A stretch of DNA of 64,000 nucleotides, from contig JABANP010000061.1 in assembly GCA_013115135.1 (NCBI GenBank), positions 121,328 to 185,327 of the forward strand, read 5' to 3'. This document shows positions 15,678-53,500 of this stretch, piece after piece. The notes below the pieces were generated by a model. That model did no database searches and was not told the origin of the DNA. It worked only from the letters and a program-made list of their open reading frames with translations. The DNA comes from Perkinsus olseni (lineage: Eukaryota; Perkinsozoa; Perkinsida; Perkinsidae). The position numbers and the translations under genes are program-made. Numbering within the stretch: the first letter of the stretch is position 1; each line of letters starts with the position of its first letter.

Positions 15678-17226
15678 ATGCTTGACGAAGATGATGCGCA
15701 GGGCCCGGAGAATCGACTAGTTCGCAGTTGGGGGCCTGAGGGCGTTAGAATGGAAAGGGAGTCGAGGGAAATGGAGAAGATGGGATTCTTCACTAGAGGG
15801 ACCGTGACAAGGCGACGGGAGTCTTCCGAGGGGGAAGAAGGGGCGGAAAGACCACTATGTGCAGGGGTAGGATCGATCCTGGGACCTTCGGGATGTTGAA
15901 GTGTTCTCTTATCGGTTACGCTAATTGTGATCGTGTAGCGTGCAAAGGGAGGAGTTTGTTCTCCTCAGAGCCGGTGGGAGATCGATCCAGCAGAATTGCA
16001 GCAGGAAGAGAGAATAGGAAGGGGGTCGACGGCGGAGGTGTACAGGGGCACTTGGAAGGGTAATGGGAAGGGGTTGTGGGTGAAAAAGTCCGAGAACTTG
16101 ACAGGCAAAACGGTGGCGATCAAGGAATTCCGTACCGACAATCGGAAGAATCTTATCTTGAAGCGAGAGTTGGAGGCAACGTTGAAGTTTTGTGCGGAGG
16201 CGTGTCATCCCAACATAGTAGGAGGGGACATAGTAGTCCACTGCTCGTTTGAGTGGAAAGGGCGCAGGTTCGATTCTATGGTGCGGCACTTTCTACTGCT
16301 CCCCTATTACTGGTGACGGAATATTGTGCTGGAGGTAATACGTGTTGCGCGTTGCTCAGCCATCACCCCCTATTCTTCAGGCAGTGTCTTTCACTTCGTC
16401 CACAAAAGGACGACGCTTTGGGACACCTCGCTTCAGCAAAAATTAAAAGATGTGTCTTGATGTTGCCAGAGCAATGCGGTGCTAGAGCGGTGCAAGGCTA
16501 GGCGTTTCAGCGATGTTTAGATACCTCCACTCGGTCGACCCTCCGATGCTGCATAGAGATCTTAAGAGCTTGAACTTGCTACTAGCGCACCCATTAGATG
16601 TGAGTTGCGGGGAAGGAGTGGTATTGTTGTTGATGACGGTGGTGGCGAAGGGGGCTTTTAGGGGCCTTCGGACGAGCCTGTGGTGAAAGTAACTGATTTC
16701 GGACTTGCCAGGGCGAAAGCAGAAAGGGACGAGAGTATGACAAGAAAAGTAGTGGGTGGGGGATTCGACCCAGGGACCTTTCCGATTGCCCATTCTTGTT
16801 TCAGGTCGGCACAATATGGTGGATGGCACCTGAGGTTCTTGACTCAACACACTACGATGAAAGGGCCGACATCTACAGCTACGCGATTGTTTGCTATGAG
16901 ATACTATCAGAAATGCCTCCATTCCGGTACTACAGCGGAGCGAAGCGTTTTTTATTTCGTACTTTTGAGCCATTTTCGCGATTGGTTAGCGGTGCTTCAG
17001 GGAGCTCAATCCGATCAAAGTGACGATGAAGATTTTGAGTGGTGAACGACCGGACCTATACGATGTAAGGTGGTCGGGTTGATCCTGGAACCTCGGGATG
17101 CATGAACTGGGGTAGATACCACCCGACGTTCCAGCCTCTTTGATTGCGATGCTGACGCAATGCTGGAGTGCGGAATGTGGCGACCGGCTCTCCTTCGCAG
17201 AGGTAGATGGGCTCGTCGAGGGTTGA
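15678..17226 (+). CDS. TKL-like protein kinase with one frame break
   Basis: Ten exons: 15678-15866, 15939-16059, 16105-16217, 16268-16334, 16381-16478, 16521-16599, 16662-16748, 16805-16926, 17001-17064 and 17116-17226 (about 349 aa). Kinase signatures in order: glycine loop IGRGSTAEVYRG, VAIKEF lysine, catalytic loop HRDLKSLN, DFG in VTDFGLARAK, activation end GTIWWMAPEV, DIYSYAIVCYEIL, and a final helix with GDRLSF. Catalytic Lys, Asp and DFG are present, so activity is expected. HRDLKSxN fits the TKL group. Exon 16381-16478 needs one base skipped near 16440-16450 to join QQKLK to MCLDVARAM; see findings. The first intron and that at 16749 are tRNA-like; the start upstream of the kinase domain is less certain. 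Confidence 0.85.
15867..15938 (-). repeat. tRNA-like intron, antisense, 72 nt
   Basis: GTAGG...GTGTAG intron joining RPLCAG to RAKGGV in the kinase gene. Its reverse complement has an A-box-like TAGCGTAACCGATAAGAG, an anticodon-arm-like ACTTCAACATCCCGAAGG and a B-box GGATCGATCC. Length 72 nt equals a tRNA and equals the intron at 27513-27584. Confidence 0.75.
16749..16804 (-). repeat. tRNA-like intron, antisense, 56 nt
   Basis: Lies between DESMTRK and VGTIWWMAPE of the kinase, so both boundaries are fixed by conserved sequence. The reverse complement carries AAAGGTCCCTGGGTCGAATC (variable loop plus T-arm) after GGGCAATC. Confidence 0.8.
17065..17115. repeat. Degenerate tRNA-like intron, 51 nt
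   Basis: Kinase intron between RPDLYD and IPPDVPASL. It contains gatcctggaacctcgggatg, close to gatcctgggaccttcgggatg in the intron at 15867-15938, which suggests a decayed antisense member of the same subfamily. Confidence 0.5.
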
Positions 17227-17342
17227 AGTCCGTACATTCAGTGACCTTCCAGATAGTCAAGTCTCTGGAAGAACTTCGAGAGAAGTTGTTGAAGAAACAC
17301 ACCGGGAGGCGCAGACCAAGGGCCGGACGAGGGAGTTGTCAG

Positions 17343-17389
17343 GTAGGATGAAGTCCCCGGGTTCGAATCCTGACTCGGACATTCATTAG
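17343..17389 (+). repeat. tRNA-like unit with GT...AG ends
   Basis: gtaggatgaagtccc followed by the B-box gggttcgaatcc and ending cattcattag. It lies after the kinase stop at 17226, so it is either in the 3' UTR or in an intron of an extended isoform (a helical frame EELREKLLKK precedes it). Confidence 0.5.
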
Positions 17390-50200: not shown

Positions 50201-50546
50201 GAAAAAAATAATTTCACGACCTTAGAACCGATTCTGAAACTAAGAAGAGATTCTGGAGTCGGATCATTCTTCGCTTGAAATCAATTCCAGAATCGATTCT
50301 GAGTCTCAGAATTAGTTACTGAAAGGGGGCGGATTTTCGTTCTCTAATCGGTGGCTCTTCCAGAGCACACCGACGTTCAGTGGCACGTGCGTCTTTCTTA
50401 GAGTGGCACCGGTGAAGGCAGTTCGAAAAATTTATTTTCGACCATTACCAGCTTCATGTTCTGTTGGAGGATTTTCCAGCAAAATGATATGAAAATTCTG
50501 TACAACGGCGGATCTTTTCTCACAGTTGTATGATTGGGTTTCATTC
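47271..50546. other. Intergenic, divergent promoter region
   Basis: Lies between a minus-strand gene starting at 47270 and a plus-strand gene starting at 50547, so it should hold both promoters. No coding frame is convincing and no classical TATA arrangement can be assigned. Holds a strong hairpin at 49890-49930. Confidence 0.45.
49890..49930. repeat. Perfect 17-bp inverted repeat, 7-nt loop
   Basis: gggacgaatgcttgtga (49890-49906) and tcacaagcattcgtccc (49914-49930). No poly-T follows, so it is not a bacterial-type terminator; its role is unknown. Confidence 0.85.
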
Positions 50547-53500
50547 ATGGCCCATAACGGTCCGTCGAGTGCAGCGTCGCCGAGCGCATCACCAGGCACC
50601 AGTGCCAATCACAAACTAACTCGACTCAGTATGTCAGCAACAACCAGAGTAAGGACTTATCACTGCCCGACCTCATTTGTATCTTGCTCGCTTCAACCTT
50701 GGATACCTTCTCATAGGTCAATAGCGTTACCACCAGAGGCTCCACAGCCACTCAGCATTCCGATCGCTTCACCGCCGTCTACCCACCCTCCGATCCCGGC
50801 GCCCCTCTCTCCGCGTGCTCTTCCGAATCTGACGAGCTTCGACCTAAGATAAACACCTCACTGTGGCGAAAGCTCGTCCGTCAACTTTCCTTCCGGGCTG
50901 GGGAGTCGAGGAATGCCAACATGTTCTTCTCTTGCATGGTCCTATTGAACTCAGTATCAGTCGGACTTGAGACAGACCTGGACGTTAACGATGACAGTGA
51001 TCTCTGGCTTGTCATCAACTCCGTTTTTCTGGTCATTTTCGGCGTGGAGCTGGTCGTGCGGTTGAGAATTGAAGGCCTACGCAGCTGGGTTCATGATACT
51101 TGGAACTGGTTCGACACTCTGCTGGTGGTCTCGGACGTGGTGGGGATGTGGATCGTCCCTTTCTTCACAGGGAAGAGCCTCAGGAGCTTCAACTTCTTAA
51201 GTGAGGGGGATGAGAGAAGGGCGCGGGTTCGATTCCCGGATGGGGTATTTTATATCTTCAGGAACGGGACGACTGCTGCGGTTGGCGAGGATTGCCCGAC
51301 TCTTCCGCTTCCTCCGGCCGTTGGCGTTGATCATGAGGGGGATAGTGATGGCTTTCAAAATAGTAATACTACCTCGAGGGAGGGATCGTTGGTGCTCGGT
51401 AGACCGATCCGAAAGGCGAGAAATCATTCTCAGGCCACTACTAACCAGTCCTATATGTTTCAATTTACAAGACTGCTGGTAAAATTTTTTATCGTTATTT
51501 TTTGAAAAATTCGTCGAAAAAAATTTTTTCGACGAATTGGAAATCGCCGTGGATGCTTATGGTTGGGCTGAAATTTCTTCGCCACAAGCGTCTCCGGACG
51601 GAAGTTTTTCTACGGGCAACGAGCGACAGGCTTCTCCGCTCTTTTTGCAGTGGGAAATGAATATCTCCAGAAAAAGGATCAAAGCGAATCATCGTTGGGC
51701 CAGCGAACGCTACTGGGAATTTCCTCTGGGGTTTATCAGCCGCCATTCTCGTTTGTAGATTACGAGACCTCACTCACTTCCTACCTCTTCGATTCGCTCG
51801 AGTCGTGGTTCGTTTCTGATTAATTCGCTTTCTCAGTGAATTGCCTTGGCATAGTGCTGTCGGGCGTTTTGCTCATGATAGAGCGGTTGGTCAGGTGCTG
51901 TGGATGATAATATTGATGACAATTCTAATTTATGTTGCTGCTGTGGGAATGCGGATATTCACTAAAAACATCGCTGAGGATTGGAGTGACGATCTGGCTA
52001 ACCCTGATTCATCGTTGCTTGCCAAGGGCTTGGGTAAGTCGGTCTGGAATTTAATCGCCAAAGCAGCGCGAAATTCGCGAGGGGACTCTACGCTATACGA
52101 ATGCTTGTTAAGTGGGAGCAAAAGCCTCACATCGCGATGGTTTAAAATGAAGTTTGTGGGATTCGAACCCGGGGTCTCCCGCCTGATTGAGGATAGGAGT
52201 TTGTCAGCATGAAGAAAATCTTTCCTCATTTTACCCGACAGGTACGTATGGCCAGCCGCCGTTCCGATCGGTACCCCAGTCCATGATTACGATGTTCCAA
52301 TTGGTCACTCTCGAAAACTGGCCCGAGGTGTAAGTCATCTCGCTGGATGGGTCAGTCCCCAGCATTCTAAATTTTCCGCTTTTCATTGATTTTTATCTGC
52401 TATTTTCCAGTTTTCCGGTATTTGTAGCGGAACTTCGGGAAGCTGTGGTTTTTCCCGGCGGGTTCTCGTCAATTTTCACGATGTTCATGATTCTTGTGCT
52501 GTATCCCAGTTCCCATAGAATATTCAACACATTCAGTAGAAGCTCGACGCACTGTTCATTCTTCGGCGGGTTTCTGGTCCTCTCGCGATTCACGGCAACC
52601 AGCGGTTGTAGGTATACCGAATTTGGATTACTTTTGGAAAAAATTGAAGTCGGATCGTCGCTCCCTGCCAGGTTCTATGCCACCGGCCACTACGTTTCCT
52701 CCATCGCACTCACCATCATCCCCTTCGTTTTCTTCATGAACTTCATCATAGTGTCCCTCATGACCGGTGTCATATTAGAGAATGTAGGGTCAATTCGGAA
52801 GGAGTGGTATCAACAAACTTTGGCCAGGTGCTAGAGGTTTCTAGAACGGATTATGAAGAGAAGAATCGACGGACTGAGGAGTTCCGGCGAACGGTAGAAA
52901 TCTGGCCTGGGTTCACTCGCTCAGTGTGAACGCCCTTCCCCGCTCAATTTCACGATTCGTAAATTTGTATTCACGTATTTCAAACCAGGGTGATGGGTAT
53001 TTTCTCAGTTCTAGAACTTCCACGATATTTCGATTCATTGTCAAATCGATCGACTCGTCCCTGTTCATCTCCACCTAGTCGATTGTCGTCGAGCTTGCCA
53101 CCCTGTTCTGACCCCTCAGGCGTTCGCCCATCTCCATGAGGTTTTCAAAGAGGCAGATGAAAGTGGCCGTGGTTGGATATCTGAGGATGAGTTTGTTAAG
53201 GTAGTGGCTTATCTGACGTTAGCGCTCGCCTTTCTGATCGATTTGTGCTCGTCATCAACAACCTGGCGTGGGGGAGGTGCACTTGCACGTATCATAGCAA
53301 ACCCTTTGCACTTCTCCTCAGCCACCATCACGAGGAGTCTCCCGTACGCTCAGGTTCTTCGGAATGCAGAAGTCGCCCAGAAGCTGAAGTTTGCAGACGT
53401 GTCCCTCCGTGATGCAGCGGAGCTATTCAGTTTGATAGACATCAACCAATCTCGAAGGGTGAGCCAGCCATTCGGTTTTGATTGGGCCGTCGATCGGTGG

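What the first reader, a model, noticed from the sequence alone, without database searches (positions are those of the whole stretch)
15867..51261. tRNA-derived units serve as whole introns in several unrelated genes
Nine short introns (15867-15938, 16749-16804, 23473-23534, 27513-27584, 35256-35338, 41664-41727, 43345-43410, 44740-44792, 51201-51261) are almost nothing but a tRNA-like sequence with a B-box (GGTTCRANNC), and several show A-box and anticodon-arm remnants. They occur in a kinase, UTP23, a helical protein, a GT2 enzyme, a coiled-coil protein and a channel. Splice sites are fixed by conserved protein motifs in most cases. Shared sub-motifs (for example CATCCCRAAG before the T-arm) group them into subfamilies. 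This looks like intron gain by a tRNA-derived SINE, an introner mechanism. Introners are known in other protists; I do not recall a tRNA-derived class in this kind of organism.
Basis: partly seen in the sequence, partly recalled or inferred. Interest (0 to 1): 0.93.

Follow-up and report, generated by a model that had tools for sequence, protein, structure and literature searches.

The report
tRNA-like fragments acting as introns
In the shellfish parasite Perkinsus olseni, scattered copies of a tRNA-like sequence make up nearly the whole of many short introns in unrelated genes, which suggests that an RNA-derived mobile element has been creating new introns.

Summary
The observation largely holds and extends beyond the window, which is Perkinsus olseni: an annotated P. 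olseni protein, on a contig whose length equals the window's end coordinate, matches a window gene. A 20-nt tRNA T-arm consensus occurs 704 times in the 61.5 Mb genome (up to 2 mismatches), its reversed control 0 times. Of 65 non-redundant units in a 350,597-base sample, 53 fall in introns predicted without regard to intron content; introns are 29% of bases. 38 of 51 unit introns are 75 nt or shorter, unlike insertion into existing introns. Protein collinearity supports splicing in UTP23, a coiled-coil gene (three introns), topoisomerase I, kinesin, ethanolamine kinase (two) and a kinase. A-boxes at tRNA spacing and T-run tails exceed chance. Orientations are about equal.

Not supported: target-site duplications, the CATCCCRAAG subfamily, recent gain (no empty site for 36 introns). 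Best reading: introner-like introns from tRNA-derived, mostly 5'-reduced copies; the RNA route is inferred. Introners are known; no tRNA-derived genome-scale class appeared in the paper listings seen.

The parts
15867..15938 (+). proposed unit intron, antisense unit, MAP3K-like kinase gene, N-terminal part
   Evidence: GT..AG and B-box on - strand; gene finder keeps the donor but ends the intron at 15968. Acceptor uncertain.
16749..16804 (+). unit intron, antisense unit, kinase activation segment TRK|VGTIWWMAPE
   Evidence: gap-free to TAK1 at the junction; gene finder donor 3 nt later, 16752
   Evidence: predicted intron with T-arm core at 17350; no protein check
17573..17648 (+). possible unit intron, antisense unit, 76 nt
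   Evidence: predicted intron with core at 17573; no protein check
23473..23534 (+). unit intron, sense unit, UTP23 gene (KQYLV|C TQDKAL)
   Evidence: exact in gene finder; eight homologues collinear
27513..27584 (+). proposed unit intron, antisense unit with D-arm-like sequence, gene at about 24.9-29.5 kb
   Evidence: GT..AG; gene finder uses acceptor 27563 instead. 3' end uncertain.
   Evidence: exact in gene finder; A-box TGGTCTAGTGGTTA 34 nt before the core; no homologue check
41664..41727 (-). unit intron, antisense unit, coiled-coil gene (EKEQE|LHIICEE)
   Evidence: exact in gene finder; skipped in annotated protein P0130, collinear in P. chesapeaki and P. marinus
43345..43410 (-). unit intron, antisense unit, coiled-coil gene (QELYK|EREN)
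   Evidence: exact in gene finder; P0130, P0131, P0132
44740..44792 (-). unit intron, sense unit, coiled-coil gene (ATEARA|ADLAAW)
   Evidence: exact in gene finder; P0130, P0131, P0132
51201..51261 (+). unit intron, sense unit, voltage-gated-channel-like gene
   Evidence: exact in gene finder, though in another frame; S4-like frame restored; two paralogous channel loci run uninterrupted over the site
52034..52241 (+). 208-nt predicted intron of the channel gene holding an antisense unit (core at 52156): a unit that is not the whole intron
22893..22916 (+). unit core outside predicted genes, between two genes
   Evidence: profile score 31.7
19296..19319 (+). unit core outside predicted genes
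   Evidence: profile score 30.5

Best explanation
The units are dispersed copies of tRNA-derived (Pol III-type) sequences that have created spliceosomal introns, that is, an introner-like class. Inferred mechanism: a tRNA-like transcript ending in CATTTT is copied from its 3' end by a reverse transcriptase, often only as far back as the variable loop or anticodon arm. The short copy is put into a gene in either orientation. Copies with GT at one edge and AG at the other (in sense, the T-run helps as a pyrimidine tract) are spliced out whole. The reading frame is then kept and the insertion survives. Shown here by computation: dispersed tRNA-like units, their concentration in short predicted introns, near-whole-intron coverage, protein continuity at eight junctions, both orientations, no interruption at the same site in distant paralogues. 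Inferred: RNA intermediate, reverse transcription, insertion as the cause of the intron.
For: Copies: 704 matches to the 20-nt core against 0 for the reversed control; 57 against 0 for an exact one-letter variant that is also among the 704. In introns: 53 of 65 non-redundant units against 29.3% of 350,597 bases, p 4e-18; 44 of 65 in introns of 95 nt or less (17.7% of bases); 41 of 49 without the window (position judged by the core's midpoint); 53 of 63 against 52% when exons are left out. Length: 38 of 51 unit introns are 75 nt or less, against 0.5% expected if 40 nt or more had been added to existing introns; unit score does not correlate with length. After the core plus 15 nt, the leftover is 35 nt or less in 42 of 61 unit introns, while only 3.3% of other introns are 38 nt or shorter. 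Protein continuity. Uninterrupted paralogues: 2 channel loci, 12 kinesin loci, 7 kinase loci. tRNA origin: A-box 9/10 or better in 12 of 72 against 1.7 expected, 7 of those 12 at -34 or -35; TTTT in the tail of 32 of 65 against 4.8%. Group structure outside the search core: 17 close pairs against 3.7 in column shuffles, maximum 10. Reverse transcriptase matches with long open frames are present.
Against: No target-site duplications; junction repeats only slightly longer than in other introns (mean 1.89 against 1.59). No empty site for 36 unit introns; nine extra copies of eight of them all carry a gap of about the same size. One near kinase paralogue (C623) matches only from just after the junction and may share the intron; two of the seven uninterrupted kinase loci and two of the twelve kinesin loci hold an in-frame stop. 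12 of 65 units are not in predicted introns, and 9 lie in introns over 95 nt. Little beyond about 37 nt is shared, and acceptor strands vary as if there were several tRNA sources. Rfam reports no tRNA at the units of the window or of 12 loci; the nearest are a tmRNA match at 51189-51240 (E 0.04) and a mascRNA match at L042:838-894 (E 9.8), both below the curators' cut-offs. ARAGORN finds nothing in the window and only three real tRNA genes in L001-L053. The gene finder over-predicts introns, favours short ones, and its models differ in places from annotated proteins. No RNA-seq.
Confidence: 0.65

Rival explanations
1. The introns are old. tRNA-derived retroposons landed in them, and the older intron sequence was later deleted down to the usual 50-60 nt, so that today the unit appears to be nearly the whole intron.
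For: Some units do lie in longer introns: 9 of 53 over 95 nt, for example 52034-52241. Non-unit introns have a median of 52 nt, so short introns seem favoured. All nine extra copies of unit introns share a gap of similar size.
Against: 38 of 51 unit introns are 75 nt or less where about 0.5% are expected, and higher-scoring units do not sit in longer introns (rho 0.07, p 0.65). Distant paralogues run uninterrupted at the channel, kinesin and kinase sites.
Confidence: 0.17
2. Repair origin: fragments or cDNAs of tRNAs were captured at double-strand breaks inside genes by end joining, in either orientation and without target duplication, and survived where GT..AG ends allowed splicing. There is then no single mobile family.
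For: No target duplications, about equal orientations (31 sense, 30 antisense), variable 5' ends and acceptor strands, mixed D-arm types among A-box copies.
Against: The T-arm is more uniform than in the three real tRNA genes seen, and close groups exist in the 14 nt downstream. The uniformity is partly a result of searching by the T-arm.
Confidence: 0.13
3. A non-autonomous DNA transposon that picked up a tRNA fragment makes the introns, as proposed for many published introner families.
For: Part of the known introner families show target duplications (49 of 130) or inverted ends (72 of 177) (PMC9860276, section 7); both orientations are used here.
Against: No target duplications, no conserved sequence outside the tRNA-like core and tail in 81 aligned hits, tRNA spacing of A-box and B-box. 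Inverted ends were not searched for separately.
Confidence: 0.04
4. Artefact: chance B-box words plus a gene finder that bridges them with false introns.
For: At least one profile hit is chance: core 16257 is kinase coding sequence, HPNI|VRFYGA. The gene finder over-predicts introns and its length model favours short ones.
Against: 0 reversed-control hits at threshold 15, 704 against 0 genome-wide, and protein-fixed junctions in eight introns of five genes.
Confidence: 0.01

Closest known systems
Introners / introner-like elements (PMC9860276: abstract in a search listing, section 7 and word search seen)
   Same: Many sequence-similar introns in unrelated genes of one genome; splicing usually leaves the coding sequence length unchanged; 5 to more than 2,000 copies per family reported.
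   Different: The unit is tRNA-like with A-box, B-box and T-run tail; no target duplication found; both orientations are used about equally. The words SINE and tRNA do not occur in the main text of PMC9860276.
Amoebophrya introners (PMC7789003, passages seen)
   Same: Intronic repeats spreading in an alveolate genome.
   Different: Those are defined by inverted and direct repeats at the ends, mostly in non-canonical introns; the units here are GT..AG and tRNA-like.
p-SINE1-like intron of rice CatA (Iwamoto et al. 1999; seen only in a reference list; that p-SINE1 is tRNA-derived is recalled)
   Same: A SINE-like sequence serving as an intron.
   Different: As far as its title tells, an intron of one catalase gene in rice and relatives, not a genome-scale class.
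tRNA-derived SINEs (general family, recalled)
   Same: tRNA-like head with A-box and B-box at tRNA spacing in part of the copies, dispersed copies, reverse transcriptases in the genome.
   Different: No target duplications, no shared LINE-like tail seen, mostly only the 3' third of the tRNA, found mainly inside very short introns.

Membership tests
Introner elements | Similar sequence in introns of many unrelated genes of one genome | tested here: met
   61 non-identical unit introns in the sampled sequence (predicted introns, at least two of them around real tRNA genes); 704 core matches genome-wide
Introner elements | Similarity covers essentially the whole intron | tested here: met
   Leftover outside core + 15 nt: median 22 nt, 35 nt or less in 42 of 61; but the part conserved among copies is only about 37 nt
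Introner elements | Intron newly gained: absent from the same site in relatives | tested here: inconclusive
   Uninterrupted in distant paralogues; no empty copy for 36 sites; orthologous DNA not available
Introner elements | Spliced in vivo | tested here: inconclusive
   Protein continuity in annotated P. olseni proteins and homologues; no RNA-seq
DNA-transposon-type introners | Target-site duplications | tested here: not met
   Longest shared word 4.40 observed against 4.47 permuted, n 65
DNA-transposon-type introners | Terminal inverted repeats | not tested
   No separate search; no conserved ends were seen in the alignment of 81 hits
tRNA-derived SINE | A-box and B-box at tRNA spacing | tested here: met
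   12 of 72 with A-box 9/10 or better against 1.7 expected, 7 of the 12 at -34 or -35; the other 60 show no such A-box and may be truncated or decayed
tRNA-derived SINE | Target-site duplications from target-primed reverse transcription | tested here: not met
   hence described as SINE-like, not filed as a SINE
tRNA-derived SINE | 3' end shared with a partner LINE | not tested
   150 reverse transcriptase matches scored, out of 421 candidates; their 3' ends could not be read
Functional tRNA genes | Full cloverleaf | tested here: not met
   No tRNA at window units; ARAGORN finds only tRNA-Ser, tRNA-His and tRNA-Phe in L001-L053

The most novel reading that the evidence does not exclude
A class of introners made by RNA-mediated insertion of tRNA-derived Pol III sequences: a 5'-truncated copy, in either orientation, can become a complete intron because the tRNA-like core, its T-run end and the insertion edges supply what the spliceosome needs. 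Scaled from contig C1 alone (7 of 7 units in predicted introns of 95 nt or less in 200 kb), the genome would hold very roughly 2,000 such introns.
Probability: 0.45. Interest if true: 0.87.

Novelty: new variant of a known kind. Interest (0 to 1): 0.76.

Why it matters
Where new introns come from is a long-standing open question. In the main source read here (PMC9860276, section 7), the introner families with recognisable features point to DNA transposons, and others have no clear mechanism. A tRNA-derived class would add an RNA-mediated route whose raw material (tRNA-like transcripts and reverse transcriptase) is common in eukaryotes (general knowledge). Public records exist for several P. 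olseni isolates, P. chesapeaki and P. marinus (names), so presence or absence at each site should be testable by computation.

Tried and rejected
A first gene-finder training failed (too few coding bases) and was replaced by a smoothed model. The 119-nt block at 55448-55566 was tested as a full-length source element and rejected: two copies only.

Considered and rejected: the CATCCCRAAG subfamily; target-site duplications; profile hit 16257 as a unit (it is kinase coding sequence; the predicted intron there is 16218-16267). Rows dropped: real tRNA genes (C1 tRNA-His, L047 tRNA-Phe), but not; L044 (overlaps L043); near-identical copies from then on (88 to 81); hits below score 20 and in the tail test, below 17 or with a short upstream flank in its A-box test (72 left).
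Full report
What the window is. The genome carries 183 matches (68 forward, 115 reverse, up to 2 mismatches, 0 in the control) to the dinoflagellate/perkinsid spliced leader; among the 100 places listed the commonest form equals the last 21 bases of the 22-nt P. marinus leader (passages of PMC3101222). 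A coiled-coil gene of the window matches P. olseni protein FOZ60_013534, listed on a contig of 185,327 bases; the window ends at base 185,327 of its contig. An ethanolamine kinase gene elsewhere in the genome matches other P. olseni proteins at 90-97%. The organism is taken to be Perkinsus olseni (Perkinsozoa).

The observation. Each of the nine intervals is GT..AG and holds a T-arm with B-box-like core; four units are sense and five antisense. A gene finder that scores only codons, splice sites and lengths, not intron content, returns six exactly and three with one end moved. Proteins fix 23473, 41664, 43345 and 44740 and, to within a codon, 16749. 51201 restores an S4-like frame, though the gene finder read on in another frame. 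The ends of 15867 and 27513 are uncertain; 35256 has no homologue check.

Genome scale. The core AAGGTCCCGGGTTCGATCCC occurs 704 times at up to 2 mismatches, the reversed control 0 times. GGTTCGANNC occurs 7,096 times against 2,544 (self-complementary forms are counted twice, so the excess is inflated). A 24-column profile finds 29 hits in window + 200 kb of contig C1, 23 of them in predicted introns, with 0 reversed hits (threshold 15; at least three of the 29 are not units). In the 30 loci taken by the 20-mer alone, which were not used for training, 48 of 62 hits lie in predicted introns, 25 sense and 23 antisense (the count includes one overlapping locus, near-identical copies and one real tRNA-Phe). 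After removing duplicates, real tRNAs and scores under 20, 53 of 65 lie in introns (29.3% of bases), 2 in exons and 10 between genes; 44 lie in introns of 95 nt or less (17.7% of bases); without the window, 41 of 49. Leaving exons out, 53 of 63 against 52%. C1 was not chosen for units: 7 of 7 lie in short predicted introns in 200 kb, though in one the core is not wholly inside its 38-nt intron. Scaled up, that is roughly 2,000 unit introns in the genome, with a very wide margin.

Nearly whole introns. Unit introns have a median of 61 nt, other predicted introns 52 nt. If a unit of at least 40 nt had entered a random existing intron, about 0.5% would be 75 nt or shorter; 38 of 51 are. The gene finder's length model favours short introns, so the protein-fixed cases matter more. 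These are 47 nt in topoisomerase I (gap-free to 1nh3 at the junction, E 2e-41), 49 nt in the P-loop of a kinesin, 50 and 47 nt in ethanolamine kinase, 62 nt in UTP23, and 53, 64 and 66 nt in the coiled-coil gene. In the ethanolamine kinase gene both unit introns are absent from the P. olseni protein P0010 and the P. marinus protein P0012; P0011 and P0013 cover only the second site as spliced. P0011 has its annotated start inside the antisense unit intron, so that isolate carries the unit too (inferred from the translated letters).

What the unit is. In 81 aligned, non-redundant hits (two real tRNAs among them) the conserved part is AGGTCCCGGGTTCGATCCCCGG, a variable stretch of about 7 nt, then CATTTT; nothing upstream is conserved overall. 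Read as a tRNA (numbering recalled), this is the variable loop, T-arm, 3' acceptor strand and a T-run like a Pol III terminator. A-box matches of 9/10 or better lie upstream in 12 of 72 copies (1.7 expected), and 7 of those 12 are at -34 or -35, the distance in a tRNA without D-loop insertions. TTTT follows in 32 of 65 copies against 4.8% of random places. The 14 nt downstream of the core show more close pairs than column shuffles (17 against 3.7), so groups exist outside the search core. The proposed CATCCCRAAG group does not stand out (61 against 50). The units are therefore read as tRNA-derived, mostly reduced at the 5' end; whether from one SINE family or several tRNA parents is open. Rfam and ARAGORN do not call them tRNAs.

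How it may work. In sense introns the donor lies a median of 7 nt before the core; in antisense introns the acceptor lies a median of 18 nt beyond the reduced 5' end of the core. This fits copying from the 3' end with variable 5' truncation, insertion in either orientation, and survival of those copies whose edges give GT and AG. Reverse transcriptase matches with long open frames are present (150 scored out of 421 candidates). Against a textbook SINE: no target-site duplication (longest shared word 4.40 observed, 4.47 permuted, n 65; junction repeats hardly longer than in other introns). Capture of tRNA-derived cDNA at breaks would also explain this and is kept as a rival.

Gain or old intron. 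Distant paralogues run uninterrupted over the unit sites: two channel loci, twelve kinesin loci (one reaches only a few residues past the site, two hold an in-frame stop) and seven kinase loci (two hold an in-frame stop). The search works exon by exon, so interrupted paralogues could be missed; the nearest kinase paralogue matches only from just after the junction and may share the intron. Thirty-six joined-flank queries found no empty site: among the 88 matches (40 of 46 candidates scored) none runs more than 13 nt over a junction on its shorter side, except the topoisomerase locus aligned to itself with a gap; nine extra copies of eight unit introns all carry a gap of about the same size. 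The insertions are therefore not shown to be recent. No relative's DNA could be searched.

Known work. Introners were reported in 5% of species surveyed (PMC9860276, abstract in the listing); 49 of 130 families show target duplications and 72 of 177 inverted ends, while others lack both (section 7); the words SINE and tRNA do not occur in its main text. Dinoflagellate introners appear in passages of a review (PMC11453091) and of PMC10666404. Amoebophrya introners have inverted repeats (PMC7789003, passages). The Roy et al. 2023 dinoflagellate paper was seen only as a citation. A SINE-like intron in rice CatA is known from a reference list. The ten paper searches listed no paper whose title or abstract start names a tRNA-derived introner class; several lists were capped and the library holds open-licence papers only.

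Verdict. A genome-wide, introner-like class of tRNA-derived introns: new variant of a known kind. The intron status is strong where proteins fix it, the tRNA origin good, gain by insertion probable, the RNA route inferred.

Noticed in passing
window 55448-55566 and 63435-63553: A 119-nt block with A-box-like word and T-arm (GTTAGTCAAGTGG ... GGTCCCGGGTTCAAATCCCAG) is 96% identical between two nearby copies whose flanking matches are about 83% identical; only these two copies were found in the genome.
   Followed up: partly
G000 contigs C778 (264811-265975, 307743-310471) and C823 (79646-81382): tRNA genes repeated in arrays, many at a spacing of roughly 165-185 bases.
   Followed up: no
G000 contigs C268, C41, C270: Spliced-leader sequences in arrays, for example about every 3.35 kb on C41.
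   Followed up: no
window 49875-49946: Hairpin with nearly matching arms of about 20 nt (weak matches to MIR2600 on both strands, E 0.4-0.9).
   Followed up: no
window about 53610-53870: Dense inverted and direct repeats of GTACGG/CCGTAC type downstream of the channel gene.
   Followed up: no
L047:1829-1901: A complete tRNA-Phe gene inside a predicted 207-nt intron, antisense to the gene; possibly a nested gene or a prediction error.
   Followed up: no
public P. olseni record FOZ62_003079 (P0011): The annotated start of the protein lies inside the antisense unit intron, probably a mis-annotation caused by the unit.
   Followed up: partly
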